Shown here one piece after another: positions 3,839 through 30,546 of a stretch of DNA of 32,005 nucleotides. The first letter of the stretch is position 1. Each line of letters starts with the position of its first letter. The DNA comes from a virus: IMG/VR virus record IMGVR_UViG_3300021960_000310, positions 1 to 32,005 of that record. One strand, written 5' to 3'. A program made the position numbers and the translations under genes. The notes beneath the pieces were generated by a model. That model saw only the letters and a program-made list of their open reading frames with translations, was not told the DNA's origin and ran no database searches.

Positions 3839-6800
3839 ATGTCGCATTTTGAGAAGAGAGTGCAACTCAATAAAATTATTGAGAGCCAACTTCCAGAATT
3901 TTTAGTTGCAGATTTTCCAAAAGCTGTTGAATTTTTTAGACAGTATTATCTGTCTTTAGAGCATCAGGGTGGTAATGTTGATCTTGTTGATAATTTAGAT
4001 CGTTATATTAAACTCGATAATCTTATCCCAGAAGTTGTTGTGGGAGAAGTATCTCTCACATCTGCAGTATCTGAATCCGATACTACAATTAATGTTACTT
4101 CGACAAAGGGATTTCCTGAGGAATATGGTCTGTTGCAAATTGGCAATGAGATCATTACTTACACTGGAATCACAGGCACTACTTTCACTGGTTGTATTCG
4201 TGGATTTAGTGGAATTAGTGGATATGATGTAGGAATTTCCAGCGTCTTTAGTAATGTAAACAAGCAAAATATTATTTTCTCTCAAACTTCTGCTGCTGCA
4301 CATAATCAATCTGCAACGGTAAAGAATCTGAGCGTATTGTTCTTACAAGAGTTTTATAAGAAACTTAAGAAAACTTTTACACCAGGACTGGAAGAGTATG
4401 ATTTTGTTTCCGATTTGAATGTTGGAAACTTTATTAAACATGCAAGAAACTTCTATCAGTCAAAAGGTATTGCAGAATCTATTAGAATCTTGTTCAAGGT
4501 TCTTTATGGAGTAAATGCTGAAGTACTGGATCTCGAAAGTCGCCTAATCAAACCCTCTTCTGCAGAATATATCAGAAGAGAGGTTGTTGTTGCAGAAAAT
4601 ATTTCTGGAGATCCATTTGGATTGGAAGGTCAAACAATATTCAAGTCAAATGATTTGAATACAAATGCATCTGTATCAGAAATTGAGATCTTTACTAGAA
4701 ATAATCAAACGTTCTATAAACTTAGTCTCTTTGTAGGATACAATGACAGAGATCTTGTAGAAGGAGTATTTACAATCCCTGGCGCTTCAAGATGCTTGGA
4801 ACCAGTTAGTGTCAATGCTTCCGTTATTAGTGTAGATTCCACAATTGGATTTGGCGAATCTGGGACGATTATCTCTGGTGATAATGTAATTAATTACACC
4901 TCAAAGAGCATAAACCAGTTCTATGGTTGCACTGGTGTAACTAATCAAATTGAACTTGGAGATCTCATAAGAGCAGATGAGACTATTTTTGGATATGAAA
5001 ATGGTGATACAGAAAAGAGATGTGATTTAAGAATCACTGGTGTTCTCTCTGGATTTAAAGCACTGTCAGATATTCCTCTTATGGAAGAGGATGAAGTCAT
5101 TTCAACCAGAAATGTTGGTGAGATCATTGACAATCCAGTAGGTGATAAAACTTTCAAGCAAGTTTTTGCAAATTCTTGGATCTACAATACTAGTGCAAGA
5201 TTTAAAGTACAATCAATCTCATCGTCAGTATTCACCTTATTCTCTGAAATTGATAAGTCCAGTCTCAAAGTAGGTGACTTTGTTGAAATTCTTGTTGGTA
5301 ATAGTAATATTGTAGTTGTACCAGATCCAAATAATTCAAATGCTTCATATGCACAAGTTTCTAGCATAAACGCATCTTCAAGAGAAGTTACTCTTTCCAA
5401 TACAGGATCTTTTGTACCATTACCAAATGTTGATTATAGCATTAGAAGAAAACTTGTAAAAGCGAAGAGTTCTGGTGTTATTATTACAATTGGAAATGAC
5501 GTTTATATTGCAAATGCCCTGAACGTTTATAGTAATGATGCAGATTCTTACGGGTATATTGCTTCAAACTCACTACCTTCATATACCATTGTAGAAAATA
5601 TTCTTGAATCTACACTTCCAGATGGAACTGTTAATGGTCTTGGTGATTATAGTTCCTACTTCCAATCATATGGAACTATAAAATTCTCCTCACCTGTTGA
5701 TTTTAGAGATGGTGATGAGATCAGATATACTGCAGCAAATTCTTTATCTGGATTAGAATCTGGTCAAACATATTTTGTCAAACTTGTAGCAGCAAATGAG
5801 ATCAAACTCTATGCCTCAAAGGCACTCTTATCTGGGAATGAGAGCATTAGATTTGGACAAAATAACAATCCTGGAGTACATTATTTCACTCTAAAGCGCC
5901 ATGAAAATAGAACACTCAGTTCTAATAAGATTGTTAGAAAGTTTCCATTAAATCAAACATTTGAAAATAAGAAAGGTGACGAAAGATCTGTAGAAAACAT
6001 TGGTATTTTAATTGATGGTGTAGAAATTACAAGTCCAAATTCTTCAGACAAGATTTATTATGGACCTATTGAAAAGTTTGAGGTCTTGAATGGTGGCAGT
6101 GGATACGATATAGTCAATCCTCCAAATATTACAATTTCTTCAGGTGCTGGGTCTACAGCATATGTTGAACCAATCATTGTTGGTAATGTAAAGAGCATTA
6201 TTATCGATCCACAAGACTTTGACTTTGAAGAATTACTCTCAGTATCTCTTACTGGTGGAAATGGATCTGGTTGTTCATTGGAACCAGTAGTAGGTCAAAG
6301 ATTTAGAGAAATGTCATTTGACAGTCGCAAACTGTCTCTCGGTGGTGGTATTGATATTTCAAATGAAACAATTACGTTCTTAGAACCACATAATCTTGGT
6401 GACGGTCAGCGTATAATCTACAATCAAAATGGAAATGATCCAATTTCCATTGGTGTTGCATATGACCCAACAAACACTGCTACAGGATCTTTGGTTAGTG
6501 GTGACGAATATGTTGTTAGATTTGTAAACACAAGTACAATTAGACTCTTCAAAAATGAGTTAGATGCTTTTGCAGGAACAACTGGAATCAATACAATTGG
6601 TCTTTCTGCAGCAACGACCGCGAGCGGCATTCACAAATTTAGAACTCTGTCTCAAAATAATCTGAGAAGTGTAAAGGTACTAAATTCTGGATCTGGGTAT
6701 TCTCATAGAAAACTTAGAGTAAGATCTTCAGGAATCTCTACAGAATATAATACAGTAACATTCAAAGATCATGGATTTAAAACTGGAGAGATTGTTACTT

Positions 6801-9800
6801 ATGAATCTTCAGGAACCACCATTGTTGGATTATCCACATTAAATCAATATTCTATTCAGAGATTAGATTCTGATACATTCAGACTTGTAAATGTTGGTGT
6901 TGCTGGAACTTATAGACAAGATCTTACAAAATCAAAATATACAAAATTTGATTCAATTGGAAGTGGATATCACATTTTCAAATATCCACAAATTGAAGTA
7001 TCTGCTAACGTTTCCTTTGGTGCAACAACTGGAACATTTAACTTCACTCCAATTGTTACTGGTGAAATTGTCGGAGCATATCTGTATGAATCTGGTAGCG
7101 GATATGGATCTACTACTTTAAATTTACATAAAAAACCAATTATTTCTATCAGCAAAGGTAAGAACGCACAGTTAAATCCAATCATTTCTAATGGAAGAAT
7201 TGTAGACGTTCAAGTGCTGAATAAAGGTTCAGAATATATTTCTATTCCAGAACTTAATATTGAAGATCAATCTGGTGGAACAGGAGCGATTTTCAGACCA
7301 GTTGTTGTTGACGGTAAAGTTGACGATGTTATTGTAATCAATCCAGGTATTGGGTATAGTTCATCAACAACTTCAATATACGTTGATCCAAGAGGATCTG
7401 GTGCAATATTTGACACTCGTGTCAGAAGTTTGAGTGTAAATGACGCATTCAGATTTGGAAAGATATCTGCAACACAATCGACAAAGATTTATTCAAATCT
7501 TTATAAGAATGATAAAGAAGATTCATTAGTTTATGGAATTTATGGATACTCTGAAGATCTTGCTGCAAACTATGAAAATCTCAGTGGATCTCACTCACCA
7601 ATTATTGGTTGGGCATATGATGGAAATCCAATCTATGGACCATATGGGTATCAAACAGCAAATGATATTCAATCTGGTATTATTAAAGTAAGACCTGGAT
7701 ATGAATTAAAAACTTCTGGTGTATTTGACAGACCAGCATTTGAACAAGGATTCTTTATCGAAGATTATCAGTATACCAATAGCGGAGATCTTGATTCACA
7801 TAATGGTAGATTCTGTAAGACTCCAGAATTTCCAAATGGAGTTTATGCATATTTTGCTGGTGTTACGACTAGTACCATTTCACCAGATTTTGTTCCCACC
7901 TACCCATACTTCGTCGGCAATACATTCAAATCAAGAATTATTGAAGATAATGAAGTCTTAGATCAAACATTTGATTTTAATGGGCAAAATCTTGTTCGTA
8001 ATACATTCCCATACAAGGTAAACGATCCAGATGCTGATTATGATTTCATAAATGAATCCTATGAAAGTTTTGAGCAACTTTCAATCGTCGAATCTGTTAC
8101 TCAGGGTGATGTCGATGAGATCAGAGTCATTGACGGTGGAAGAGGATATTCCATTGGTGATGCAGTAAACTTTGATTTTGAAGATGCTAATGGATCTGGA
8201 CTGAGAGGTCGGGTAGAAGAACTTAAGGGTGCTGGCATATCTTCAATTACTACAGAATTGGAGAGAAATTCAAATTGTGTATTTGTTTGGGATAATGATA
8301 CCCAAGTTTCAGCATATACTTTAGATGGATTCGATCTAAACAATAATGATACAGTTCTTGTAAGTGGTCTTTCAACTTCAGTACCATTCCTTGCGGGTCC
8401 AAAGAAAATAGGATTTACTACAGAATCTGTTGGATTAGCAGGTACAATGACCTCATATTCAGCAATTACTGGTGGAATCGATGAGGATATCTTTGTATCT
8501 TCAAGATTCAGAACAGTATCTATAGGAAATTCTATAACCATTGTATCTTCAAGTGGTACAGAGGTTGTTAAGGTTCTGAATGATTTTGAAAATGGTGTAG
8601 TAAGAGTTAAGAGATTTGGTTCAGCAGGTGTTGCCCACTCTTTCGGAAGTAAACTCAACTTGAGTTGTGATAGAGTTAAGTTACCTGTAAAGACTACAAA
8701 GTTTGAATCGCAGAGAGATAAGTTAATTTATTTTAATGCTATAGAATCTGTAGGAATTGGAACCACTGTAGGTGGTGCAGTAGAAAAAGTATCTCAGGTT
8801 GGCGTCACTACATCTAGTGTTTCTATTCCTTGTAGATCGATCTATATTTCAAATCACGGTCTTAAAACTGGTGAGAGAGTAACGTTTACAAAGACATCTA
8901 CTGCAGGTGTAGATTCCTTGATTGTTGGTGACAATAATCTAAATGTAAACACTTTCTATATCCCAGATAATTTTACACTCACAAGTGAAGTTTATGTAAT
9001 CAACAAAGGACAAAATTATATTGGTCTTACCACACAGGTTGGTTTGACAACTTCAACTGAAGGATTGTTCTTCTATAGTGACGGATCTGATAATGCAGAA
9101 TATCTGCTGAAGACCAATAAGCAACAAATAACTGGTGATGTTGATAGAATTACAACTACCGTCAGTACTTCTGCAACACACGGTCTGCAGAATGGTGATT
9201 CAATTAAGTTGACTGTTGTTCCCAATACTGTTGTTGGATTTGGTACAACTGCAGCACTCAACATAAAACTGAACAGTAGTGAGAAGAAGATACTGGTAAA
9301 TCCTTTAGGTATCAACTCAACTTCTATTAGTATTGTTGATGGATCGTTTACATATACAGATCATGGATATGAAACTGGCGACAAGGTTTTCTATGAAAGT
9401 GCAGAAGTTGCTACAGGATTGAGCACTGGTTCATACTATGTAATTAAAGATAGTAACAGTAAGTTCAGACTTGCTGAAACTTTATATGAATCAAACCCAA
9501 GCACAGAAAATGCTGTAAGTATCACAGCGACTGGTGGAGTAAATCATTATGTTTCAGCGATTAATCCAAAGATATCTGTCGTAAGAAATAGTGATCTTCA
9601 ATTCAATCTCCAAGATACTTCTCTGAGAGGATATGAGTTAAAGATTTATAGAGATAAAGATTTCATAAACGAATATATTAGTTCTGCTGATAGTAGAGAA
9701 TTTAATGTTGTTGGTCTTGGTAGTGTAGGATTTGGAACAGCGTCAAATTCTTCTCTGACTTTAAGATATTCGAAAAATATTCCCTCTAAACTCTATTATG

Positions 9801-12800: not shown

Positions 12801-15800
12801 ATCACTTCTTTAACACAGCAGAAGAAGTTCTGTACAATCCAGTTTCTACCTTTGTTGGAGTTGGACAAACTTCAATGGGAATTGGAGCAACTTCAAACTA
12901 TCTTGGAATTGTTACCGATAAACTTCCAGAAAAAGTTTATCCAATTGCACTGACCCCAGATACTTTCAAATTAGCAACAACTCCTGAATTTGCAAGAGCA
13001 GGAATCTTTGTTACCTTTACTGATCCTGGACTTGGAAATGCTCACGAATTAGAATTTACTAAGAAATTAAGTAAAACTGTTATTGCGATTGATGGTATTG
13101 TACAGCAACCAATTACATTTACTCCCGTCAACCACAAGTTAGACTTTAATGGTCACTATCTTGCTGGAGGAATTCCTGCAGGCATTTCAACCTTCAACAT
13201 TAGTGGAATTTCGTCGGTTCAACCAAGAGATCTTCTCAAAATTGATGAAGAATATATGAAAGTTATTGAAGTTGGTTTTAGTACCAACTCTGGCGGAGAA
13301 ATTCTTGGTCCAATCAATGGTCTTATTGCCGCTGGTGCTGCCGCAACATTCCCAACAGTTTCTGTTGAGAGAGGATCTGTTGGAACAGCAGCAACATCAC
13401 ACACAGATGGATCTACTGTTCAAGTATACAGAGGTGCTATCAACATTGTAAAGAATGAAGTATTCTTCATTGAACCACCAAAAGGAAATAATAGAGCAAG
13501 AAGAAATGAGAGCAATCTTCCTTATGTGACTGCTTCATTCTCAGGAAGAACTTTCTTGAGATCTAATTATGATACCAATATGATATTCGATGATATTTCG
13601 GATTCATTTACTGGTATTGGTAAGACATACACACTTAAGGTCGGTGGTGCTGATACAACTGGCGTTGAACCAGGAAATGGAATTCTGTTTATCAACGGTA
13701 TTTTCCAGACTCCTTCAACAGATAACAACGCTGGAAACAACTACGATATTGAAAGAGACACTGCTGCAGGCATTACAAGTGTAGTTTACACTGGTATTAC
13801 TTCTGTTGACGGATCTTATATTTTATCAGAATTTGATATTAACCAGAATCAACTTCCAAGAGGTGGTTTGATTGTTTCTCTGGGTTCTACACCTGGTCTT
13901 GGATATGCACCTTTGGTTGGTGCAAAAGTTAAGGCAGAGAAAAATTCTTCGGGTGAAATTACAAATATTATTGGAATCAATACTTACACGGGTTCAGTTT
14001 CAATCAGTACAGCACTTTACAATGAAGTTACTGGAATCCTTGAAATTGAAACAACAGATTCACACAATCTGCGCGGTGGAGACAGAGTAAAACTTGCTAA
14101 TCTTGAATTTAGTTGTGCTTCAGCACATGCAGGTGTTACAACAACAATCTTCCCAGATTATGATTATGCCTTAGACGTTGATAATATTATTTCTGCAACA
14201 GGTGTTGCAATTAATGTCGGACCAAGCACAATTGCTCACACATATGAGTCTGGTGGAACAGTAGCAAGATTCTTTGATCTTAACTTTGGATCTGGTTATA
14301 GATCACCAGTTTCTATTGGAATTACAGATATTGCATATGAGCACAGATTTGTAAGATCTGCTTCTAACAGCATTACTGCAAGCACTGGTGGTCCATTCAC
14401 TCCAACTAAAGCGAAGTTTACCCCACATACTGGTATTCTCCAATTAACAATTCCAAATCATGGTTTAACCACCAGTGATACTATCGGAATTGCTACAGAT
14501 GGTCTGGTATTTACTTGCTCCGATGATGATTTCTTCACTGAGCAACCATATCCAAGATCTACTGATCCTGCTGCTGGAGCAACACTTGGAATTACCACAT
14601 ATACTACAAATACAATTAGTGTTGGAGTTGGTTCTGCTGGTGGTGCTGGAACTGGTGCTGTTATAGAAGCAGTAGTTGGTGCTGGAGGAACTTTATCATT
14701 CTCGATTACAAATCCTGGTCAAGGATATATCAATCCTTCAGTTATTATTCCAGAACCAAATTATGAGAACATGCAAGTTGTTGGTGTTTCCAGACTTGGT
14801 GTTGGAGCAACTACAGAAGTTGGAAGAAATCTCCTGCTTAATCTGACAGTCGGATCAGCAAATACTAGTGTTGGTATTGGATCTACATTGTTCCTTATTG
14901 ACACATTTAAGATTACAAGATCTGGATATGGTTTCCAACCAGGTGACGTTATGAAGGTAGTTGGTCTGGTCACTGCAAAAGACTTTGCAGCACCAGTTTC
15001 CGATTTCCAACTCGAAGTTGTAGAAACATTTAGCGATAGATTTGCTTCCTGGTCATTCGGTGAAATGGATTATATTGATAGCGTCTTTGGATATCAAGAT
15101 GGAAACAGAAAGAGATTCCCACTTTACTATAATGGAGAACTCTTAAGTTTCGAATTAGATCCTAACAATCCACTTTCCTCTGCTATTGACTTAGATTCTG
15201 TTCTGGTAATATTCGTCAATGGTGTACTGCAAACTCCAGGATATTCATATCAATTTACTGGAGGAACCTCATTCCTGTTCAGTGAGGCACCAAAGGTAAA
15301 TGACAAGATTGATATCTTCTTCTATGTTGGCATAGATGGTGTTGATGTTCTTCAAGTTGAAACTACCGAAACAATTAAAGTTGGTGATGACTTATTCGTA
15401 AGGAAGCATCCTTCCTATAATGACACCGAAGATCAACTTCGTGAGAGATCTATCACAGAAATTACTGGATCTGATATTATTGAAACTGATATCTATACTG
15501 GTCCAGGTGTAAATGATAATGTCTTTAGACCATTTGACTGGATTAAACAGAAGAAAGATATCTATGTGAAGGGTGATATCATTAGCAAAGTTAGACCAGT
15601 ACTTGAAACTAAAGTATTCCCAACTGCAAGAATTATTGGTGATGTTTCACCTTCTTCTTCGGAAATATTCGTAGATAATGCACAATTCTTTGATTATGAC
15701 GAAATCATTCTTGATCTAAACTCAGGATCATTCACATTTGACGCATTCATGGTCGATTCAAACGAACCAGTTTCTGCAGCATTTACTTCCACAGTTTCTA

Positions 15801-16684: not shown

Positions 16685-16689
16685 CCAGA

Positions 16690-16697
16690 TATAAATA
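16690..16697 (+). promoter_or_regulatory. T4-type late promoter (perfect TATAAATA)
   Basis: Exact consensus in the 30-nt gap between the giant gene and gp8, 17 nt before the gp8 ATG at 16715. It should drive gp8 and the DUF4815 gene. Confidence 0.85.
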
Positions 16698-16714
16698 CAT
16701 AAAAAAAGATAACG

Positions 16715-18274
16715 ATGTCAGCAATTGTTACTGATCAATTTAGAATTCTGAATGCCAGCAATTTTGTTGAGTCAGTAGAAAATTCTTCTAACTCATATTA
16801 TATAACTGTGGGTCTACCAAATCCAACTGTTGTTGGTTATGGTAGAACCACTGCTTGGAATACAAACCCACCATCACCTATTGATAGCATTAGTTACAAT
16901 AGTCATGCTGGTGATGTTATTTTGTATGGAAAGAGAATAACTTCTGCTAATGTAAGAAGACTGGTTAGAAGAATTGATTGGATCGCTGGAAGTAGATATG
17001 AAATGTATCGTGATGATTATAGCATTCTCAATCCAGCACCTTTGACAAATGCATCTAGATTATATGATGCAAACTACTATGTAATGAATAGTGATTACAG
17101 AGTTTATATCTGTATTGAAAATGGGTCCAGTGGAGGTAGTCCAAAAGGAAATGTCTCTCAAGATGAACCCACTTTCACCGATTTAGAACCAACAAGAGCT
17201 GGTGATAGTGGTGACGGATACATTTGGAAGTATCTGTTCACTATTAGTCCAAGTGACATTATCAAATTTGATTCTACAGAATACATTACTGTACCAAATA
17301 GTTGGACAACTAGTACAGATTCTCAAATAAGATCTATTAGAGAGTCTGCAGATTCTAGTGTTAATGAGAACCAAATTAAAACGGTATACATTGAAAGATC
17401 TGGTTCAAACTATGCAAATGGTTTGGGTCAAGAAATGAATATCATTGGTGATGGAACTGGAGGAAAAGTAAGAGTTGACGTAGAAGGTGGTAAAATCACT
17501 AATACCGTTGTCACCTCTGGTGGTAAGGATTATAGTTATGCACTTGTAGATTTGGGATCAATCAATTCCAACACTACAGGTACTAGTGCTAAATTGGTGC
17601 CAATTATTCCACCCTCAAAGGGTCATGGATTTGATGTTTATACAGAACTAGGAACCGATAAGGTTTTAGTTTATGCAAGATTTGATGATTCTACAAAAGA
17701 CTTCCCAGTAGATACCAGTTTTGCTCAAGTTGGAATTGTAAAGAATCCAACTAAAGTTGGTACAAATGACGTTTACCAAGAGAATACGTTCTCTGGTCTT
17801 AGTTCCTTCAAATTCTCATCAATTACAGGAACACCAAAAATTGGTGAAAAGATTGAGCAAGTAGTTGCAAATGGAACAGGGAAGGCATTTGGTTATGTCG
17901 CTTCTTATGATCTTGAAACGAAGGTTCTGAAGTATTTTAGAGATAGATCTCTATTCTATAATCAGACCACTTTTGATCAACAAGATTATACTGGTATATC
18001 CACCAATGGAAGACCATATAATTTTGAATCTTCATCAAATGTAATCAGCGGAAAAACTTCTAATTTTTCTGCAGCAATTGATACAGCATTTGCGGGGATT
18101 ACTACAAATCCAACAGGAACAAAATTAATTAATCTTGGTGTTAACTTCACTAGTGGAATGGCGGTTCCTGAAATAAATAAAGGATCGGGACAATTAATTT
18201 ATCTCGACAACAGAGCTAGCATTGCTAGAAACGCACGCCAAAAAGAAGACCTCAAAATTATACTGGAATTTTAA
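16715..18274 (+). CDS. gp8: Baseplate wedge subunit gp8, with extra beta insertion
   Basis: 519 aa against 334 in T4. The T4 family marks are present: an N-terminal AIVTDQFR segment, R-R-x-DW (86-89), the DSGDGYIWKYLF block at 164-175 (T4 has GDGYVWEYLF), EYITVP (189-194), and a C-terminal LIYLDNR...EDLKIILEF matching T4 MIYMENR...EEINILFTF. gp8 forms the dimer that ties gp7 and gp10 into the wedge. The extra length comes mainly from about residues 221-300, which carry two GxxY beta repeats (SGSNY and GGKDY), and from the following region to about 460. It begins right behind its own late promoter and is followed 3 nt later by the DUF4815 gene. A weak Shine-Dalgarno is seen before the ATG. Confidence 0.9.
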   Translation: MSAIVTDQFRILNASNFVESVENSSNSYYITVGLPNPTVVGYGRTTAWNTNPPSPIDSISYNSHAGDVILYGKRITSANVRRLVRRIDWIAGSRYEMYRDDYSILNPAPLTNASRLYDANYYVMNSDYRVYICIENGSSGGSPKGNVSQDEPTFTDLEPTRAGDSGDGYIWKYLFTISPSDIIKFDSTEYITVPNSWTTSTDSQIRSIRESADSSVNENQIKTVYIERSGSNYANGLGQEMNIIGDGTGGKVRVDVEGGKITNTVVTSGGKDYSYALVDLGSINSNTTGTSAKLVPIIPPSKGHGFDVYTELGTDKVLVYARFDDSTKDFPVDTSFAQVGIVKNPTKVGTNDVYQENTFSGLSSFKFSSITGTPKIGEKIEQVVANGTGKAFGYVASYDLETKVLKYFRDRSLFYNQTTFDQQDYTGISTNGRPYNFESSSNVISGKTSNFSAAIDTAFAGITTNPTGTKLINLGVNFTSGMAVPEINKGSGQLIYLDNRASIARNARQKEDLKIILEF

Positions 18275-18277
18275 AAA

Positions 18278-21200: not shown

Positions 21201-24200
21201 GACAAGGATCTGCAGTTCCTTCTCGCCAGTTGTTAGTTGTTTATGATGCATACGCAGTTGGTTCGAATAATACTGGGGACATTTTCACAGTAAATTCATA
21301 CTCTCAAGATAGATTTACTAGCGATATTCCAACTCTTCCAAACGGACTTCGCTGCTCAGATCTGCTCGATTTTAGACCTAGAGTTGCAGCATTTAATCCA
21401 GCAACCACGAATGCATCTCCATTTGCATTCTCTAGTAGACAGTATGAATACAACTATAAGTATGTTGTTTCTCCAGATGAAACTTCATTCATGGGTTATA
21501 GTTACTATCTCCCAAGAATTGACTTAGTTACTATTAATCGCTTAGGTGAAATTGAAGTTATCAAAGGAGAACCTGCGGATAAACCACAGGCTCCAGTCCT
21601 TGCAGATGATGCAATGGAGATTGCACAAATTCTTCTGCCACCATATCTGTTTAATCCAACAAAAGATCCAAAGGTTCTTCTTCGTGATAACAGAAGATTC
21701 ACGATGAGAGATATTGGTAAACTTGAAGATAGAATTGAAACATTAGAAGAGTTGACCAGCTTAAGTATGCTGGAAATGAACGCAAAAACTCTTGAAATTA
21801 CCGACGCTAATGGTATCAATAGATTCAAGAGTGGATTTATTGTTAGTGACTTTAGAGACAAATCTCTTTGCGATCCACGCCTTTCCACAATTGATATTTC
21901 AAAAGAAGGTGCAACAGCGATTGCCCCAGTTGATTTTTGGTCAATGGGAGCACAACTGGCATTAGATCCAGGAATTGACGTAGATCAAGCAGATATGAGT
22001 CAAAACTTGACTCTTCTTGATAGAAATATCAGAAAGACTGGAGATTTATTAACACTCGATTATCAGGAAGTTGGTTGGATTGATCAACCACACGCAACAA
22101 ACGTTGAAAATGTTAACCCATTCAATGTTATTGTATTCGTTGGTGGCGTTGTATTAGATCCTCAATCTGACAACTGGGTTAGAACTATTTACGTTGACGA
22201 TCACAGAACAGAATCGACTGGTGCCAAATGGACTCAAGAGGCAAATGTAACCAGAGATGTTGATAACAAAACGGAGTATGTAACTTACAAAAAAGGTGGT
22301 GGTAGAGGTGAGACTGCAACTAGAGCATTTACCACTACAACAATTACAACAACAACTAAGTATACTCCAAAACTTCAAGGTCCTTCAAGAGAATTTAATT
22401 ACGTTGAAGATGTAAAAGTATCCGGGGAAGCAGATCCATGGATGCGTTCAAGAAATGTTTATTTCAATGCAAATGGATTGAGACCTTTCTCAAAGCATTA
22501 TTTGTATTTGGATAGTCAGCAAGTTGACATTATTCCAAAACTTTGTGAAATTGAGATGGTTTCTGGATCATTTAGAGTTTTTGAAAACGCAAATATCTTT
22601 GACTCTACAGGTAAGAAGATTGGATACATTAGAGTTCAAAAACCAAATCACAAATTTGGTGATACTTCCAGACCAGACATTGGTGCTGGACTTGGATCCC
22701 CAGCAGTTTTGGTTGAAGAATACAGCGTAGATCCATACGATAGAAACAGACCAGCACCAGGTGACGCTTATTCACCAACCTCAAGACTTATTAACTTTGG
22801 TGTAAGAGCACTTTCTACCGATGAAAAGTTCTATGGATATGTTGAAAGAGGTTCCAGAGTAATTGGTGAAACATCTGGTGCCGTTGCTACAATTACCAGA
22901 GCAGAATTAGTGTCTGACAACTGGGGAGATATTGTTGCAAACTTCTTCTTCAGAGATCCAAATTCAAATCCACTGCCACCAGTAAGAGTTAAGAGTGGAA
23001 CAAAGACCGTTAAGGTAACAGCAGTTCCACCAAATACAGTAGTTCTTCCAGGATCTACAGTATTTGCTTCAGAGGCACTTGGAACTTATAGTGGATCTGG
23101 ATCAATTCTGACACAAGAAACAAGTCGTGTTTCTGTTAGAAATCCACCCAAACCTGCAGCAAGAAAAACAGAAGTTGAAGTTCAAGTTAAAGCACCTCAT
23201 AGAGACCCATTAGCACAATCATTTACTGTTGATGGAAGAGGAGCATTCCTCACTTCATTCGATCTCTATTTTGCAACCAAGGATCCTGGGGCAAAAATTT
23301 ATGTGGAATTGAGAACTATGGAGTTGGGAACACCAACCTCATTCCTTGTTCAGGATTACACTCAGGTTGCCTTGAATCCAGATGATATTAATATCAATGA
23401 GGCAAATCCATTCGAACCAGTTCCAACAAGAATTCGTTTCCCATCTCCAGTTTATCTTGAAGCAAATAAAGAATATGCAATTGTTATTCTTTCACCAGCT
23501 TCAGACGGTTATGAAATGTGGACTGCAACAATGGGTAAGAAGACTGTCAGAACGACAAATCTTCCAGACGTTCAGAATGTAGTTGTTACCAAGCAATATA
23601 TTGGTGGATCTCTGTTTAAGTCTCAAAATGGTACTATTTGGACAGCAAGTCAGTATCAGGATTTAACATTCAAACTGTATAAAGCAAAGTTTGTTCCTTC
23701 AGGAACAGTTACTTTCTACAACTCTGATGTTCTTCCAAAAGGTGATAATAGCAGCAAACTTCAAGATAACCCAATCGAAGGTTTGCCAAGAAAGTTAAAA
23801 CTGCCAATTTCTGGAACACTTAATGCAAATGTTAGACCTGGCGTAAAAGTCACAGAAGGATCCAGTGGTTCAAACATCACAGGATTTATTGAGAACATTG
23901 GTGGACCAGCAGTATCTGGAACTGGAAATGTTTCAATTGCTAGCAGTGGTATTGGATATGTAAATAGTTCTTCTATTTCAAGTGTTCCTCTTTATTCATT
24001 GACTGGCAAAGGAACTGGAGCACAGGCAACAATTACAACAAATGCTTTTGGTAATATTCAATCCGTAAATATTACTTCTGTTGGTGAAGGATTTGTTCCT
24101 GGAGAAACTGTTGGCATTGTTACCTCAAGCATGGGTACTGCTTCACAACAAAAAGGTTCTGGAGCAAAAATAACAATCACTGGAGTTGGAAATCCAGATT

Positions 24201-25699: not shown

Positions 25700-25705
25700 T
25701 AAATA
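25698..25705 (+). promoter_or_regulatory. Possible late promoter overlapping a start codon (AATAAATA)
   Basis: AATAAATA covers the DUF4815 stop region and the first base of the next ATG (25705). Transcripts from it would begin inside the 70-aa gene and so could serve only the 56-aa gene at 25907. It may be a chance match at the TAA/ATG junction. Confidence 0.3.
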
Positions 25706-25917
25706 TGGAAGAAAAAGATTTTATTCAAGTTGAAGGAGAACATAATCTTTTCAGAGATAGAAATACTGGCGCTATTCTTAATACCGATAGCGCCGGTTAT
25801 ATTCAATATCAAAAAATGAAACAACGAAGACAATCTGAGCGTGCTGAACTTGATATGATAAAAAATGATATAGAAGAAATCAAATCACTATTGAGGCAAC
25901 TTGCCAATGGATCCTGA
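25705..25917 (+). CDS. Small conserved phage protein with C-terminal coiled coil, 70 aa
   Basis: 70 aa, starting 5 nt after the DUF4815 stop. The N-terminal half reads FIQVEGEHNLFRDRNTGAIL, then NTDSAGYIQYQKMK, a pattern (LFRD..TGAI.NTD..GY..Y) I have seen in small proteins of many T4-like marine phages. The second half is a charged helix (RRQSERAELDMIKNDIEEIK) with spacing fit for a coiled coil. It lies in the block between baseplate and neck genes, so a virion or assembly-adaptor role is plausible. Its end overlaps the next gene by 11 nt, which suggests translational coupling. No function is known to me. Confidence 0.7.
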   Translation: MEEKDFIQVEGEHNLFRDRNTGAILNTDSAGYIQYQKMKQRRQSERAELDMIKNDIEEIKSLLRQLANGS

Positions 25918-26077
25918 TAAAATTGAATTAGAAAATTTAAGCAAGAGTTTTGAATATTTCAAACTGGCAGCAGAGGTTGACAACATTACTTCTGTTGAGG
26001 AATTGAGAAATCTGGCTAAATCCTACATAAAACTCTATTTTAAACAACAAGAAGTTGTAAGTAGTTTGGGACTTTAA
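25907..26077 (+). CDS. Small helical conserved protein, 56 aa
   Basis: ATG at 25907 inside the end of the previous gene (11-nt overlap, other frame); TAA at 26075-26077. It encodes 56 residues: MDPDKIELENLSKSFEYFKL, an EVDNITSVEELRNLAKSYIK stretch, and FKQQEVVSSLGL at the end. It is predicted all-helical. The 'L-x-N-L-A-K-S-Y-I-K-L-Y-x-K-Q-Q-E' run is a pattern I recall from small proteins of other cyanomyoviruses at this place. It is easily missed by gene callers because of size and overlap. Pairing with the upstream gene suggests the two products may act together. Function unknown. Confidence 0.65.
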   Translation: MDPDKIELENLSKSFEYFKLAAEVDNITSVEELRNLAKSYIKLYFKQQEVVSSLGL

Positions 26078-26081
26078 GGAA

Positions 26082-26089
26082 TATAAATA
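26082..26089 (+). promoter_or_regulatory. T4-type late promoter (perfect TATAAATA)
   Basis: Exact consensus 25 nt before the ATG at 26115, in a 37-nt gap. Because later gaps are too short to show another site, it probably drives the fibre block and the neck genes through gp16. Confidence 0.85.
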
Positions 26090-26114
26090 TTTCTACATCC
26101 TGAACTGTATATAA

Positions 26115-26342
26115 ATGGCTGAAATAAAAGTCAGAGTAGGTCAGCAACCGGCGGTAAAAGTAATATCTTCTCTCGCAGGTGCCCAGGGTCTCTCTTTGGC
26201 AGAACTCAGTGATGTTAGTGCTTCTAACTTGCAAAATGGTATGGTGCTAGTTTACAACAGTAGCATCAGAAAATGGGAAGCAACACTTACCCTGACGCCA
26301 GGCGCAACGCAGAATTTAGACATCAACGGAGGAAATTTCTGA
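26115..26342 (+). CDS. Small fibre-associated virion protein, 75 aa
   Basis: 75 aa. After a short beta N-terminus (MAEIKVRVGQQPAVKVISSL) comes LSLAELSDVSASNLQNGMVL, then VYNSSIRKWEATLTL and a C-terminal LDINGGNF. The 'L.DV..S.L.NG.VLVYNSS..KW.A' pattern is a repeat unit found in many tail-fibre proteins of marine phages; here it stands nearly alone as its own gene. It ends 1 nt before the next start and shares the closing GG-x-F motif with that protein (TLDGGTF). I infer a small tail-fibre or baseplate adaptor. T4 keeps genes 11, 12 and wac in this interval, but no homology to them is visible. Confidence 0.65.
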   Translation: MAEIKVRVGQQPAVKVISSLAGAQGLSLAELSDVSASNLQNGMVLVYNSSIRKWEATLTLTPGATQNLDINGGNF

Positions 26343-26343
26343 C

Positions 26344-28050
26344 ATGGCAAGTATTATCAGGATTAAAAGATCCTCGGGTACTAGCAAACCATCCACCCTA
26401 CAATGGGGTGAATTTGGATATGTAACCGGTATTGGTAGTTTCGGAGGAACTAATCAGTACAAGGACAGAATTTTCCTTGGAGATGATGGTACTAACGCCA
26501 ACCCAGTTGGTGGATATTACTACACCTCAATGATGGAGCACGATCCAGGTGCTGTTGCAGGTGTACAAAACACAAGAAACCAAGACGGTGGCGTTGTCGC
26601 CGTTATGGAACCACTGCCAAATACTGGTCTTGGTGGTGCTTCTTCACTCAAAGTGGATCAGTGGAACGTCGATAATTTAAGAATCGATACCAATACAATT
26701 TCTTCAACAGATACTGACGGAGACATTGTACTCGATCCAAATGGAACTGGTGAAATTCAGATTCCAGACGATACATTTCTCACTTTTGGTGATGATAAGA
26801 ATGCAAAATTTGAATATGATGAGAATGGAGTAGATCAGTTTACTTATACTGGTGCCGACTTCCGCATTAATGTTGTTACAGAGTCTGTCAATAAGGACAC
26901 TGGTGCATTAATTGTTGAAGGTGGTGTTGGTATTGAAAAGAGTCTGAATGTTGGTGGAAACTTTAGTGTAAGTGGAAATTCAATATTCGATTTAATCAGA
27001 ATCGAAGATAATATTATTTCTAGTATTCCAGGAAGTAATGATACGATCTACATTGATCCATATCCCGATGGATTGAGCAATGAAGGAACTGTTATAATTA
27101 AGGGTAACTTACAAGTTGATGGTACAACCACCACCATTAACTCAACACAGAAGACGGTAAATGATCCGATCTTACATCTTGGTGATGTAACAAGCGCAAG
27201 AACGGTTATGGCAACCGTTGCTAGTGGTGCAAACTTAATTACTCTCGATTCTGTTGTTGGTATCAATACTGGGGATATAATTGCTCACGCAAATATTCCT
27301 AGTTCAACTTCAATCACAGCATATAATACTGGAACAAAAGTAGTTACTATCAGTGCCAACACGACTGCTGGCATTTCAACAACTGAGCAAGTAACAATTA
27401 CTCATGCATATGATAGCAATACCGATAGAGGTATTTCTTTCGCATACAATAGTGGAAGTGGCGTTGCAGATAACGAAACTGGATTCTTTGGTATGGAGGA
27501 TGACTCCATTGCCACCAGCACTGCTGGAGTAGATAACCACGGAACACACGCTGACGATAGCAGAAGATGGGTATATATTCCCGACGCTACTATTGCCAAT
27601 AGTGTTGTAGCAGGAACCAAAGGTTTCCTTGATATCAAAGGTATTTACTATCAGTCTGGTGACTATGCAACTGGTGGTGTTGTCTATTTTGACAGCACTG
27701 GTCTTCAAAGATCTACAAATGCTGTTGCTTCTCCAATTTTCACTTCAAAGCAAGTTTTAACTGCAATCACTAAAAAGACATTTGATCTTAGTGTAGCAAT
27801 TACTGCTTCTGCTGGTGATATTATTAGACAAGATACCAGTGGTGCATATGGTGTTGTTGAGCAAGGTGTATCTGGATCAACTCAAGTCAGTCTTGTTGGT
27901 ATTGAAGGCACATTTACCACTGGAAGCAATCTGAGAAGAGAAGGTCAGAACGGATTTATTACAAATCTCGCTTCAGTTCCCAATACAATCACCGACATAT
28001 ATACTAATAAACCACACTGGACTTCAACTCTTGACGGAGGAACTTTCTGA
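26344..28050 (+). CDS. Tail fibre-like structural protein, 568 aa
   Basis: 568 aa. The start MASIIRIKRSSGTSKPSTLQ followed by WGEFGYV (21-27) is a common N-terminus of cyanophage and pelagiphage fibre-type proteins. Two related beta repeats follow: LRIDTNTISSTDTDGDIVLD (112-131) and IRIEDNIISSIPGSNDTIYI (218-237). Between them is NKDTGALIVEGGVGIEKSLN (183-202) followed by VGG, another fibre repeat seen in these phages. A TINSTQKTVNDPILHLGD segment (264-281) precedes a C-terminal half of about 290 residues with no known domain, ending TLDGGTF. No chaperone-type peptidase end is seen. It lies between the baseplate and neck genes, the interval T4 uses for gp11, gp12 and fibritin, and I infer a fibre or fibre-network protein. 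Host binding cannot be read from sequence. Confidence 0.72.
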   Translation: MASIIRIKRSSGTSKPSTLQWGEFGYVTGIGSFGGTNQYKDRIFLGDDGTNANPVGGYYYTSMMEHDPGAVAGVQNTRNQDGGVVAVMEPLPNTGLGGASSLKVDQWNVDNLRIDTNTISSTDTDGDIVLDPNGTGEIQIPDDTFLTFGDDKNAKFEYDENGVDQFTYTGADFRINVVTESVNKDTGALIVEGGVGIEKSLNVGGNFSVSGNSIFDLIRIEDNIISSIPGSNDTIYIDPYPDGLSNEGTVIIKGNLQVDGTTTTINSTQKTVNDPILHLGDVTSARTVMATVASGANLITLDSVVGINTGDIIAHANIPSSTSITAYNTGTKVVTISANTTAGISTTEQVTITHAYDSNTDRGISFAYNSGSGVADNETGFFGMEDDSIATSTAGVDNHGTHADDSRRWVYIPDATIANSVVAGTKGFLDIKGIYYQSGDYATGGVVYFDSTGLQRSTNAVASPIFTSKQVLTAITKKTFDLSVAITASAGDIIRQDTSGAYGVVEQGVSGSTQVSLVGIEGTFTTGSNLRREGQNGFITNLASVPNTITDIYTNKPHWTSTLDGGTF

Positions 28051-28053
28051 TAC

Positions 28054-28242
28054 ATGGAACAACAAAATGAAGTGGATGTAAATGTTCTCATTAAACTTTA
28101 TAATTCCAAATTAGCAACATTAACAAATCAAAACGTTCTGCTTGAGGCAAAGTTAAGTACTTTGTCTCAGGATTATAAATCACAAGTAGAAGCACTGCTC
28201 GAAGAAAACGCCAATCTTAAGGCACAACTAGAGACAAAGTAA
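28054..28242 (+). CDS. Short coiled-coil protein, 62 aa
   Basis: 62 aa, nearly all one amphipathic helix. Heptad 'a' positions fall on Ile13, Leu20, Asn27, Leu34, Tyr41, Leu48 and Leu55, with Tyr16, Leu23, Leu30 and Leu37 at 'd'. An Asn in one core position is typical of parallel dimers or trimers. The start is 3 nt after the fibre gene and gp13 begins 1 nt after its stop. T4 has wac (fibritin, a long trimeric coiled coil of the whiskers) directly before gene 13, so position and fold suggest a whisker- or neck-related part; this is inference and no sequence match to fibritin is visible. It could instead be an assembly chaperone. Confidence 0.68.
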   Translation: MEQQNEVDVNVLIKLYNSKLATLTNQNVLLEAKLSTLSQDYKSQVEALLEENANLKAQLETK

Positions 28243-28243
28243 T

Positions 28244-29107
28244 ATGGCAAAACCATCAACTAGACAAGGTTTAATTGACTACTGCTTGCGTCAACTTGGT
28301 GCTCCAGTATTGGAGATTAACGTTGATGATGATCAAATCGACGATCTAGTTGATGATACCATTCAATATTTCAACGAGCGTCATTATGATGGTGTTGAAA
28401 AAATGTACCTTAAGTATAAAATTACTCAAGACGATATTGATAGGGGAATAGGTGCTGTTACTGCAGGTTCAGACACTGTAAATGGGACAACTGGGGTAGG
28501 AATTGTAACTACCACGGCAACTTCCACAGGTATTGCTGCAACCACATTCAATTTTTACGAAAACTCAAACTTCATTCAAGTTCCAGATTCAGTAATCGGA
28601 GTTGAAAGAATATTTAAGTTTGATACTAGTTCCATTTCTGGTGGAATGTTTAGTATCAAATATCAACTGTTCTTGAATGATCTTTATTATTTCAATTCGG
28701 TAGAATTGTTGCAATATGCAATGGTAAAATCATATCTTGAGGATATTGATTTTCTGTTAACTACCGATAAACAAATAAGATTTAATAAGAGACAAGATAG
28801 ACTGTATTTGGACATTGATTGGGGAGCACAATCAGTAGGAGATTTTATTGTTCTTGAGTGTTATAGAGCATTAGATCCAGGATCTTTCTCACAGATTTAT
28901 AACGATAGTTTTGTTAAGAGATATTTGACCGCTCTCATAAAGCGTCAGTGGGGACAAAACCTAAGTAAGTTTAAAGGTGTTAAACTTCCTGGAGGAATTG
29001 AATTAAACGGTGGAGAAATCTACCAACAAGCCGAACAAGAATTAAGTGACATCAAATCAAGGATGTCCATGGAATATGAACTTCCACCTCTCGACTTTAT
29101 TGGATAA
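28244..29107 (+). CDS. gp13: Neck protein gp13 (head completion)
   Basis: 287 aa against 309 in T4. The N-terminus has the strong family block LRQLGAPVLEINVDDDQIDD (15-34), then YFNERHYDGVEK. The middle carries a Gly/Thr-rich insert at about 67-100, and then the conserved region with QIRFNKRQDRLYLDIDWG, ECYRALDP, KRYLTALIKRQWGQNLSKF and a closing ELPPLDF. In T4, gp13 and gp14 form the neck ring complex that closes the filled head and lets the tail attach. Its stop overlaps the gp14 start by one base (taATG), a sign of translational coupling of partners needed together. Confidence 0.93.
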   Translation: MAKPSTRQGLIDYCLRQLGAPVLEINVDDDQIDDLVDDTIQYFNERHYDGVEKMYLKYKITQDDIDRGIGAVTAGSDTVNGTTGVGIVTTTATSTGIAATTFNFYENSNFIQVPDSVIGVERIFKFDTSSISGGMFSIKYQLFLNDLYYFNSVELLQYAMVKSYLEDIDFLLTTDKQIRFNKRQDRLYLDIDWGAQSVGDFIVLECYRALDPGSFSQIYNDSFVKRYLTALIKRQWGQNLSKFKGVKLPGGIELNGGEIYQQAEQELSDIKSRMSMEYELPPLDFIG

Positions 29108-30546
29108 TGGCACTTAATCCTTTCTTTTTACAAGGGACTGCATCTGAGCAGAGATTAGTCCAAGATATTGTCAATGAGCACCTGAAATTTCATGGTGTGG
29201 AAGTTACTTATATTCCAAGAAAATATGTAAATATAAAGACGATTATTGAAGAGGTACAAACTTCAAAATTTGATGACAACTTTGCAATTGAAGCATATGT
29301 AAACACTTTTGAGGGATATGGTGGTGCTGGAGATATCCTGACAAAGTTTGGTGTAAGTGTTAGAGATGAATTGATTCTCACAATCTCCAAAGAGAGATTT
29401 GAGGATTTTATCGCACCATTTATGGCAGGTCAGGACGACGGAACTGAAGATTCTATAATGCCAACTCCAACAAGACCCAGAGAAGGAGATCTTGTTTATT
29501 TCCCATTGGGACAAAGACTTTTCGAAGTTAAATTTGTTGAGCATGAAGATCCTTTCTATCAGTTAGGTAGAAATTACGTTTATCAACTCAAGTGTGAACT
29601 CTTTGAATATGAAGATGAAGTTCTTGATACAACAATTGAAGAAATTGATACTCAAATTCAAGATGAAGGATATATTACTACACTCCAATTGATTGGTGTT
29701 GGAAGAACTGCAACAGCATCGGCAATTATTGCAGGAACGGTTCCAAGTGGATATATTTCCGAAATTTATTTAAACAATGATGGTAGTGGATTTACTTCGG
29801 TTCCAACAATTGGAATTACTTCTTCCCCAACAGGTCAAGTTGGAGATAATGCAACTGCTGTTGGATTCTTAACAACAAGAGCTGGAGTAACTTCTATTGA
29901 TAAGATTCTTCTAACAAATGCTGGTGCTGGATACACTGTTGCACCAACAATTACAATTACTGGTGGAGGTGGTGTTGGAGCAGCAGCAACTGCTGCTATT
30001 GTTACTTCTGGTCAAGGTGTGGTTAGAATTACAATTACTGATGGTGGTGTTGGTTATAGTACAACGCCTATTGTAACTATTTCTGGTCCACCAAGCAGTG
30101 GTATTGCAAAAACTGCTGTTGGTATTGCATCTATTGGTTACGACGGATCTGATAAGATTGTCAAGGCAATCTACATCAAAGATCCAGGTAGAGGATATAG
30201 TTCTGACCCAACCGTTACCATTGCAGATCCAGAAACACTATCTGGAGTTGGAACTTACCTGTTTAACGAAGTTGTTATCGGATCCAGATCAATGCTGGAA
30301 GCAAGAGTCAAAGAATGGGATGAAGATACTAAGGTCCTTAAGATTTCTAACGTTGGTATAGCAGACACTCAGATAGGATTCTATCCTGGTGAGCTTATTA
30401 TTGGTAAGACTTCTGGAGCGTCTTATCCTGTCTTAATTTATACGCAGGATGACATTTATGATAAATACACTGAAAACGATGAATTTGAAAGACTAGGAAA
30501 AGGTATCCTAGATTTCACAGAATCAAATCCATTTGGTACTTATTAA
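29107..30546 (+). CDS. gp14: Neck protein gp14 with four inserted GxGY repeats
   Basis: 479 aa, nearly twice the 256 of T4 gp14. Residues 1-200 are the gp14 core: MALNPFFLQGTASEQRLVQD, IPRKYVNIKTIIEEV, GDLVYFPLGQRLFEVKFVEH and a YQLKCELFEYEDE segment. The core resumes at about 383 (YLFNEVVIGS) and ends with FTESNPFGTY. Between them, about 205-378, lie four tandem beta repeats with GxG[YF] at 226-229, 273-276, 314-317 and 361-364, spaced 47, 41 and 47 residues. gp14 joins gp13 to make the neck and the site to which the tail binds. The insert should stand out from the neck surface. It overlaps gp13 by 1 nt and its last base is the first base of gp15's ATG. Confidence 0.92.
   Translation: MALNPFFLQGTASEQRLVQDIVNEHLKFHGVEVTYIPRKYVNIKTIIEEVQTSKFDDNFAIEAYVNTFEGYGGAGDILTKFGVSVRDELILTISKERFEDFIAPFMAGQDDGTEDSIMPTPTRPREGDLVYFPLGQRLFEVKFVEHEDPFYQLGRNYVYQLKCELFEYEDEVLDTTIEEIDTQIQDEGYITTLQLIGVGRTATASAIIAGTVPSGYISEIYLNNDGSGFTSVPTIGITSSPTGQVGDNATAVGFLTTRAGVTSIDKILLTNAGAGYTVAPTITITGGGGVGAAATAAIVTSGQGVVRITITDGGVGYSTTPIVTISGPPSSGIAKTAVGIASIGYDGSDKIVKAIYIKDPGRGYSSDPTVTIADPETLSGVGTYLFNEVVIGSRSMLEARVKEWDEDTKVLKISNVGIADTQIGFYPGELIIGKTSGASYPVLIYTQDDIYDKYTENDEFERLGKGILDFTESNPFGTY
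29719..30240 (+). repeat. Four-copy GxGY protein repeat inside gp14
   Basis: Each unit reads roughly Gly-Ala-x-Ala-x-Val, then x-Ile-x-x-Ile-x-[DN]-x-G-x-G-[YF]-x-x-x-P-x-[IV]-x-[IV]. Examples are TDGGVGYSTTPIVTISGPP and KDPGRGYSSDPTVTIADP. The DNA copies are diverged, so this is a protein-level repeat and not recent DNA duplication. Confidence 0.85.

What the first reader, a model, noticed from the sequence alone, without database searches (positions are those of the whole stretch)
6080..30240. One GxGY beta-module shared by four different virion proteins
The same 40-47 residue unit recurs in the giant gp7-position protein (GxGY near residues 752, 951, 1086, 1130 [GSEY], 1170, 1433, 3627, 4001, 4047), in gp8 (two copies, about 221-280), in the DUF4815 protein (1891, 1936) and in gp14 (four copies). 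Consensus: G-x-G-A-x-a-x-V, then G-x-[IV]-x-x-[IV]-x-[IV], then G-x-G-Y-x-x-x-P-x-[IV]-x-[IV]. Copies that lie side by side keep a 40-47 residue period. Finding the same unit on baseplate, neck and fibre-network proteins suggests a portable surface module, perhaps for glycan or particle binding, spread by recombination over T4-like core proteins. The repeats are seen; function and exchange are inference.
Basis: partly seen in the sequence, partly recalled or inferred. Interest (0 to 1): 0.75.

Follow-up and report, generated by a model that had tools for sequence, protein, structure and literature searches.

The report
Portable GxGY beta-module on virion proteins

Summary
Observation confirmed. 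An HMM trained on gp14 units finds gp7 copies; trained on gp14+gp7 it finds held-out gp8 and DUF4815 copies in relatives, with no reversed hit at 10 bits or more. AlphaFold2 models of gp14 and gp7 show the same three-strand unit.

The unit also sits in other cyanophage fibre and wedge proteins and, cleanly inserted, in tail sheaths and lambda-like tail tubes: a solved 164-residue tube protein aligns on both sides of a ~70-residue unit pair. 61 of 64 cellular loci found by similarity carry two or more units in one ORF, some in multicopper oxidases. One solved example is protruding Ig-like domain D3* of tailspike Dpo31. HMMs run both ways tie it to domain I of T4 sheath protein gp18, the outward knob that binds retracted fibres; one of three published retraction-blocking mutations (G106S) is the first glycine of its GxxY motif.

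Pfam models only the T4-type version (PF22639), which hit none of the canonical GxGY proteins scanned.

Most likely: an accessory exposed insertion module giving weak docking surfaces. Family and insertion are well supported; docking in this phage is inferred. In gp14 the array looks old and inherited.

The parts
6053..6139 (+). gp7-position protein, GxGY unit (res 739-767, GSGY 753)
   Evidence: HMM 23.7 bits; modelled beta unit
6614..6703 (+). gp7 unit (res 926-955, GSGY 951), directly before a small beta-barrel (957-1050)
   Evidence: HMM 22.6 bits; model strands; barrel match
6959..7000 (+). gp7 possible half-unit with GSGY 1041
   Evidence: motif and model; no HMM hit in the window (-2.3 bits)
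7031..7138 (+). gp7 unit with GSGY 1086
   Evidence: motif; 0.9 bits in window; HMM hits in 10 orthologues; model strands 365-370, 373-385, 402-405
7166..7267 (+). gp7 unit (res 1110-1143, GSEY 1130)
   Evidence: HMM 30.3 bits
7274..7378 (+). gp7 unit (res 1146-1180, GIGY 1170)
   Evidence: HMM 29.9 bits
8081..8173 (+). gp7 unit, GxGYxxGD subtype (res 1415-1445, GRGY 1434)
   Evidence: HMM 18.3 bits
10013..10084 (+). gp7 degenerate unit (res 2059-2082)
   Evidence: 5.8 bits in window, up to 16.8 in orthologues
14246..14329 (+). gp7 unit (res 3470-3497, GSGY 3484)
   Evidence: HMM 16.2 bits
14642..14758 (+). gp7 unit (res 3602-3640, GQGY 3627)
   Evidence: HMM 30.6 bits
15767..15886 (+). gp7 unit (res 3977-4016, GAGY 4001)
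   Evidence: HMM 24.4 bits
15902..16021 (+). gp7 unit (res 4022-4061, GFGY 4047)
   Evidence: HMM 44.7 bits; found by gp14-only HMM at 24.0 bits
17354..17416 (+). gp8 unit 1 (res 214-234, GSNY)
   Evidence: 5.3 bits in window, up to 16.3 in orthologues
17447..17536 (+). gp8 unit 2 (res 245-274, GKDY)
   Evidence: 7.5 bits; 13.8 bits with broad HMM, not held out
23900..23986 (+). DUF4815 protein, possible unit (GIGY 1891)
   Evidence: motif and 45-residue spacing only; -1.0 bits
24005..24121 (+). DUF4815 protein unit (res 1910-1948, GEGF 1936)
   Evidence: 6.4 bits; 12.0 bits with broad HMM, not held out; profile match
29695..29832 (+). gp14 unit 1 (res 197-242)
29833..29964 (+). gp14 unit 2 (res 243-286)
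29965..30096 (+). gp14 unit 3 (res 287-330)
30097..30237 (+). gp14 unit 4 (res 331-377)
30244..30417 (+). gp14 small beta-barrel part (res 380-437) that, with res 187-195, brackets the array
   Evidence: most VIA-align rows span model residues from about 187 to 437 with only some 60-80 aligned residues, i.e. the array looks inserted in a barrel loop

Best explanation
The GxGY units are members of one family of ~40-residue beta units (hairpin, GxGY turn, short strand) that occur in tandem, often in pairs, as an accessory module inserted into loops or between domains of virion proteins. In this T4-like cyanophage they decorate neck gp14, baseplate gp7 and gp8, and the DUF4815 protein. Shown: homology of the units across the four proteins, shared predicted strand pattern in gp14 and gp7, clean insertions in tail tubes and sheaths elsewhere, presence in cellular proteins. 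Strongly indicated: T4 sheath gp18 domain I is a divergent member. Inferred: the module is solvent-exposed here too and its job is to offer a protruding, weak docking surface, mostly for other virion parts (retracted fibres, baseplate, appendages) and in some carriers for glycans, not to build the core machine.
For: Family; PHROGs cross-hits (gp7 to head-closure family phrog_460, E 6e-14; gp14 to the families of gp7 and gp8, phrog_2885 E 1e-5 and phrog_438 E 1e-4). Shared strand pattern. Insertion: tail tube L280 aligns to solved 164-aa tube 25vd as res 1-114 and 109-164 with ~70 residues (a unit pair) between; L299 has the same arrangement. Aestuariivirga sheath L241 aligns to pyocin sheath up to and from residue 138 with four units between. 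Sheaths L366, L367 and L357 carry a pair at about 95-171, where T4 has domain I (98-188). gp8 is 178 residues longer than gp8 of 9f4a, the unmatched middle (198-448 against 220-265) holding the pair. T4 link: the five Straboviridae sheaths have their best hit at 96-118 (avDM3 14.2 bits, 0 of 3000 shuffles; summed score of six T4-type sheaths reached by 0 of 500 column-consistent shuffles). Reverse direction: an HMM of T4-type domain I gives 25 hits at 8 bits or more, 22 on GxGY units, which fill 3.7% of residues; 0 in reversed sequences; several hits are orthologues of each other. Role: domain I protrudes, makes no sheath-sheath contact, binds baseplate and retracted fibres; G106S, S175F, A178V inhibit retraction (PMC3004832 section 12). 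With initiator Met counted these are G107, S176, A179; G107 opens the GSNY motif. Solved member: Dpo31 D3* (434-536) is an inserted, protruding Ig-like domain (PMC13317679, passages); a unit profile hits 445-506, E 0.00097.
Against: No binding or fibre contact was tested for any cyanophage copy. Foldseek against PDB gave no match below E 0.001 for either model, so fold identity with T4 domain I ('six-stranded barrel', PMC3004832) or D3* ('Ig-like', PMC13317679) is not shown, and the two papers name different folds. The T4 link rests on ~25 residues. T4 alone scores only 4.4-5.0 bits, within reach of shuffles (best 5.3 in 100 shuffles of 17 T4 proteins), and profile comparison gave 16%. 8 of 8 named non-T4-type sheaths examined lack a detectable unit. 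The first half of the Dpo31 pair alone is within shuffle range. gp14 and gp7 may use the array simply as structure.
Confidence: 0.6

Rival explanations
1. Glycan-binding adhesion module: weak binding to host-surface sugars speeds adsorption, as proposed for Ig-like domains on phage tails.
For: Dpo31 D3* sits on an exopolysaccharide depolymerase and its authors found distant likeness to sugar-binding Ig-like domains, DALI Z 2.9. Ig-like accessory domains are proposed to bind carbohydrates weakly (passages of PMC8718954 and PMC9230969). Nearly invariant aromatic in the motif.
Against: D3* alone showed no depolymerase activity, and whether it is needed could not be tested (PMC13317679 section 22); binding was not reported in the passages seen. 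No carbohydrate-binding Pfam model hit the proteins scanned. A neck protein lies far from the host surface. The aromatic sits in a turn and may be structural.
Confidence: 0.25
2. Structural cement or spacer: units thicken the baseplate and neck and hold neighbouring subunits, with no partner outside the shell.
For: Many copies strung with small barrels through the 4281-residue gp7; array present in 78 of 78 near gp14 relatives.
Against: Array diverges faster than the gp14 core (mean pairwise identity 0.65 against 0.82 in 38 sequences), though no faster than the C-terminal part (0.64); copy number differs (2 to 7 detected) among six named cyanophages; T4 gp14 shows no unit, and solved tube 25vd and pyocin sheath lack the insert.
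Confidence: 0.3
3. Convergent Gly/Thr/Val-rich low-complexity repeats, not homologous.
For: Composition is biased; relatives of the window protein at 26344-28050 give 9 reversed-sequence hits at 6 bits or more, one at 8 or more; single shuffled gp14 copies reach 9.6 bits.
Against: Reversed and locally shuffled controls are otherwise near empty; motif order, spacing and predicted strands agree; the reverse-direction HMM result.
Confidence: 0.04
4. Calcium-binding repeat of RTX type.
For: Glycine-rich tandem repeats on exported or surface proteins.
Against: No unit column is acidic in more than 0.38 of sequences in any of three groups; the RTX consensus (recalled) needs conserved Asp.
Confidence: 0.02

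Closest known systems
T4 tail sheath gp18 domain I (Pfam PF22639, Gp18_dom_I)
   Same: Same GxxY motif block found by HMM in both directions, same slot as the GxGY pair in sheaths L366, L367 and L357, protruding accessory insertion (PMC3004832 section 12).
   Different: Pfam's model hit T4 and avDM3 but not L366 or any other GxGY protein scanned; T4's domain also has a helix; homology shown for ~25 residues only.
Dpo31 domain D3* of Cobetia phage Carin-1 tailspike (8ck1, 28lx, 28mg)
   Same: Holds a unit pair (445-506) in an inserted, protruding domain.
   Different: On a podovirus depolymerase; its authors call it Ig-like and do not name this family in the passages I saw.
Phage Ig-like accessory domains (e.g. 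lambda gpV C-terminal Big_2)
   Same: Portable, exposed, non-core module on tail tube, sheath and other virion proteins (PMC8718954, PMC9230969 passages).
   Different: No Ig-type Pfam model matched the units; in the tube protein the GxGY pair is inserted in a loop, not appended at the C terminus.
BACON tandem repeats of crAss-like phages
   Same: Tandem repeated domains on a phage protein (PMC6949934, seen only in a search listing).
   Different: Different family; not compared here.

Membership tests
GxGY unit family (defined here) | HMM match above shuffled and reversed controls | tested here: met
   gp14 and gp7 in the window; gp8 and DUF4815 clearly only through held-out orthologues; 15 of 17 listed sites at 5 bits or more, gp7 1086 and DUF4815 1891 not met
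GxGY unit family (defined here) | hairpin, GxGY turn, short strand | tested here: met
   DSSP of AlphaFold2 models for gp14 and gp7; gp8 and DUF4815 copies not modelled
T4 gp18 domain I (PF22639) | match to the Pfam model | tested here: not met
   no PF22639 hit in window gp7, gp8, DUF4815 protein, gp14 or in L366; met only by T4 and avDM3 sheaths
T4 gp18 domain I (PF22639) | two-way sequence relation through the motif block | tested here: met
T4 gp18 domain I (PF22639) | same three-dimensional fold | tested here: inconclusive
   not among rows shown; no coordinates to superpose
Phage Ig-like accessory domain | match to an Ig-type Pfam model over the units | tested here: not met
   the one Ig hit, Big_7 in L276 at 1299-1373, lies outside its units, which end at 1185
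Phage Ig-like accessory domain | accessory, exchangeable position on tail proteins | tested here: met
Phage Ig-like accessory domain | Ig fold | tested here: inconclusive
   authors call Dpo31 D3* Ig-like; no structural match for our models
Carbohydrate-binding module | binds glycan | not testable with these tools
   needs binding assay
RTX calcium repeat | conserved acidic position in the repeat | tested here: not met

The most novel reading that the evidence does not exclude
GxGY modules are the tailed virion's general docking knobs: from T4 (gp18 domain I) to cyanophages (neck gp14, baseplate gp7/gp8, DUF4815 protein) the same module, placed along the path of folded fibres, clamps retracted fibres through its GxGY turn, and phages retune fibre deployment by adding, losing or swapping modules.
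Probability: 0.2. Interest if true: 0.85.

Novelty: new variant of a known kind. Interest (0 to 1): 0.7.

Why it matters
It unites annotated and unannotated pieces (a T4 domain with published mutants, an 'Ig-like' tailspike domain, repeats on cyanophage necks and baseplates, inserts in tail tubes and sheaths, arrays in bacterial multicopper oxidases) in one unit family for which the Pfam and NCBIfam scans here showed no general model. A single HMM would annotate many hypothetical stretches of giant cyanophage proteins, and the T4 mutants make the function directly testable.

Tried and rejected
Low complexity or chance: rejected by shuffles and reversals. RTX calcium repeat: no conserved acid. 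A known Pfam or NCBIfam domain over the units: none seen in the proteins scanned, apart from PF22639 in T4 and avDM3. Known PDB fold for the models: no Foldseek hit below E 0.001. VIA rows for gp14 matched the bracketing barrel, not the array (Z 6.2 at best, 66 aligned, rmsd 2.6). For gp7 they matched the small barrels between units (UBA6 Z 8.4, 77 aligned, rmsd 2.3; endosialidases 4hiz Z 6.7 and 3ju4 Z 6.5). Absence of gp18 or Dpo31 there is uninformative. Cyanophage-only module: suggested by tblastn (65 of 65 records are Synechococcus or Prochlorococcus phages, cyanophages or 'Marine virus' records; 312 records with 2 Alteromonas phages) but overturned. Plasmids: no match. A first genome scan with the S-RS29 array found 0 relatives among 247 stretches. 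Recent exchange into gp14: not supported. Other ORF classes of the relative loci (gp6, gp13, gp15, small terminase, protein 26344-28050) gave no site at 8 bits or more. Among 17 T4 proteins only gp18 scored above 0 bits. The shuffle test of the Dpo31 segment supports its second unit (17.5 bits; best of 2000 shuffles 13.5) but not the first half alone (12.8).

Literature: ten searches; no listed title or abstract start described this repeat family. I saw sections 12-13 and passages of PMC3004832, section 22, outline and passages of PMC13317679, passages of PMC8718954, PMC9230969 and PMC10684548; all others only as listings.

Biases: the gp14 pool (78 ORFs) was chosen by closeness to the query. 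Cellular and viral loci L241-L384 were chosen by likeness to one unit pair, so 144 of 144 carrying units is by construction and the lists are capped, no census. The HMM used for the T4 test left out units of L366, L367 and L241 but not of sheath L357. The six-sheath shuffle test includes K491, whose record gives no family and whose hit lies elsewhere. In scripts ORFs were taken from stop to stop.

Full report
What the window is. A T4-like cyanophage structural block (a virus record of 32,005 bases): a small wedge protein, gp6, a 4281-residue gp7-position protein, gp8, a 2473-residue DUF4815 protein, a further protein of unknown function, gp13, gp14, gp15 and small terminase by PHROGs (gene numbers follow T4 order). 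Closest named gp14 among the 40 rows listed is that of Prochlorococcus phages P-SSM2 and P-SSM5, 67%.

Is the unit real? Yes. A four-copy gp14 HMM already finds gp7 4022-4053 at 21.7 bits, with no shuffled copy reaching 8 bits in 100 shuffles of each window protein. Enlarged with gp14 orthologues only, it reports six gp7 sites at 5 bits or more against one hit in all shuffles. Enlarged with gp7 sites it recovers the held-out gp8 (63 sites at 10 bits or more) and DUF4815 (8 sites) families, with none in reversed ORFs; at 6 bits or more reversed ORFs give 9 hits, all in relatives of the protein at 26344-28050. Profile-profile comparison agrees at the predicted places, though for gp8 and DUF4815 with 1 of 4 gp14 units each and at 33% and 16%. 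PHROGs shows the same cross-links: gp7 matches the head-closure family phrog_460 at 1112-1184, gp14 matches wedge families phrog_2885 and phrog_438. The window's own gp8 and DUF4815 copies are weak with the gp14+gp7 HMM (5-7.5 bits, inside the range of the worst shuffles) and clear through orthologues; a broader HMM gives 12-14 bits for one copy each but saw their relatives in training. gp7 1086 and DUF4815 1891 are not recovered in the window.

Structure. AlphaFold2 on a 38-sequence gp14 alignment (mean pLDDT 60.7, pTM 0.41) gives low confidence for the T4-like core but 75-93 for residues 201-370 of the array; each unit is two longer strands, the GxGY turn, and a short strand. The gp7 piece 700-1480 on 36 sequences (mean 72.1, pTM 0.63) shows the same pattern at about 81-96 through residues 740-1200, with a dip near 910-930. 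In gp14 the residues before and after the array seem to form one small beta-barrel, so the array looks like a loop insertion. In gp7 the units alternate with other small barrels resembling those of endosialidases and ubiquitin E1 enzymes. Foldseek found no solved match below E 0.001. Against viral models the gp14 model matched a YHYH protein of a cyanophage (E 3e-6) and, less surely, wedge and other virion proteins; those alignments have large rmsd and can be driven by sequence.

Where else. tblastn with the gp14 array finds 65 records, by name cyanophages and marine viruses; among the 60 listed most hits are gp14, some tail-fibre, wedge or structural proteins. Six named cyanophage gp14s carry 4, 4, 4, 7, 2 and 6 detected units. 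A unit pair from an S-RSM4 fibre protein led to 64 cellular loci of many phyla and 80 viral loci; 400 and 379 units at 8 bits or more, reversed 1 and 2. 61 of 64 and 80 of 80 have two or more units in one ORF. Recognised carriers: multicopper oxidases in 5 of 13 cellular proteins scanned with Pfam (L253, L249, L255, L245, and L262 below the Pfam cut-off but with NCBIfam support); lambda-like tail tubes (L280, L299); tail sheaths (L241, L366, L357); gp14-type head closures (L329, L370); a DUF4815-family protein (L325); a fibre protein (L334). Many others have no recognised partner domain.

Insertion. L280's tube protein matches the 164-residue solved tube 25vd on both sides of a unit pair; L299 has the same arrangement. 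L280's neighbours are tail genes: neck-type, assembly chaperone and tape measure. The L241 sheath matches pyocin sheath PA0622 up to and from residue 138 with four units between, again beside phage-type head-closure, tape-measure and tail genes. In T4-like sheaths the slot at about residues 95-190 holds a canonical pair in L366, L367 and L357, the PF22639 domain in T4 and avDM3, and no detectable unit in 8 of 8 other named T4-like sheaths.

The T4 connection. All five sheaths from listed Straboviridae have their best HMM hit at 96-118 (avDM3 14.2, Skers 8.5, T4 5.0, phiAS5 4.7, Lazarus 2.9); a sixth T4-type sheath, K491, has its best hit at 165-191. T4's own score is not significant alone. Nulls: 0 of 3000 shuffles of avDM3 reach 14.2; 0 of 500 column-consistent shuffles reach the summed score of the six. 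Profile comparison gives 16% at 100-118, reversed 0.1%. The reverse search with a T4-type domain I HMM lands on GxGY units in 22 of 25 hits at 8 bits or more, some of them orthologues of each other. In T4 this domain protrudes, is not used in sheath-sheath contacts, binds the baseplate and retracted long tail fibres, and three mutations in it (G106S, S175F, A178V) inhibit retraction (PMC3004832 section 12). All three residues match the sequence only if the initiator Met is not counted: G106 is then the first glycine of GSNY, and S175 and A178 lie in a stretch that in phiAS5 weakly matches the unit's first strand (3.2 bits). This is the strongest lead to function and it points to docking. It remains a lead: the relation covers about 25 residues and no fold comparison was possible.

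The solved member. A six-sequence unit profile hits one PDB protein below E 1, Dpo31/Dpo36 (445-506, E 0.00097). Its structure paper describes domain D3* (434-536) as inserted, protruding and Ig-like, with DALI Z below 3 to sugar-binding domains (passages); D3* alone has no depolymerase activity (section 22).

Mechanism. Shown: homologous tandem units, inserted in accessory positions, on many virion parts. Inferred: exposure in the cyanophage, and docking or weak adhesion as the job. No acidic column argues against calcium repeats; the aromatic of GxGY is nearly invariant (0.99-1.0). The gp14 array diverges faster than the core, but no faster than the C-terminal part, and its units match by position in 17 of 24 comparisons between distant phages, so it has probably been inherited for long, with some expansions, not swapped in lately.

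Verdict. A real, widespread and apparently unnamed module family; the kind (portable exposed beta-modules on virions) is known, the family and the T4 and Dpo31 links appear new within the searches listed.

Noticed in passing
window 7541-7879 (gp7 residues 1235-1347): A YHYH domain (PF14240, E 6e-25) lies in the gp7-position protein between GxGY units; function in a baseplate protein unclear.
   Followed up: no
window 6707-6988 (gp7 residues 957-1050) and gp7 residues 821-937: Small beta-barrels between units resemble the endosialidase beta-barrel (3ju4, 4hiz, 23-24% identity) and the E1 enzymes UBA1/UBA6: a second repeated module in this protein.
   Followed up: partly
L253, L249, L255, L262, L245: Bacterial and archaeal multicopper oxidases carry GxGY arrays along with their oxidase domains, in ORFs of about 1000-2200 residues.
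   Followed up: no
L367 2-4922: One virus has units on both the gp14-type gene (four) and gp18 (two), separated only by gp15 and the large terminase.
   Followed up: partly
L241 150-3605: An 1152-residue DUF4815-like protein (phrog_877) lies near the unit-bearing sheath in a bacterial genome, perhaps a prophage or tailocin.
   Followed up: no
window 25700-26343: About 640 bases between the DUF4815 gene and the next gene hold no ORF of 80 codons or more.
   Followed up: no
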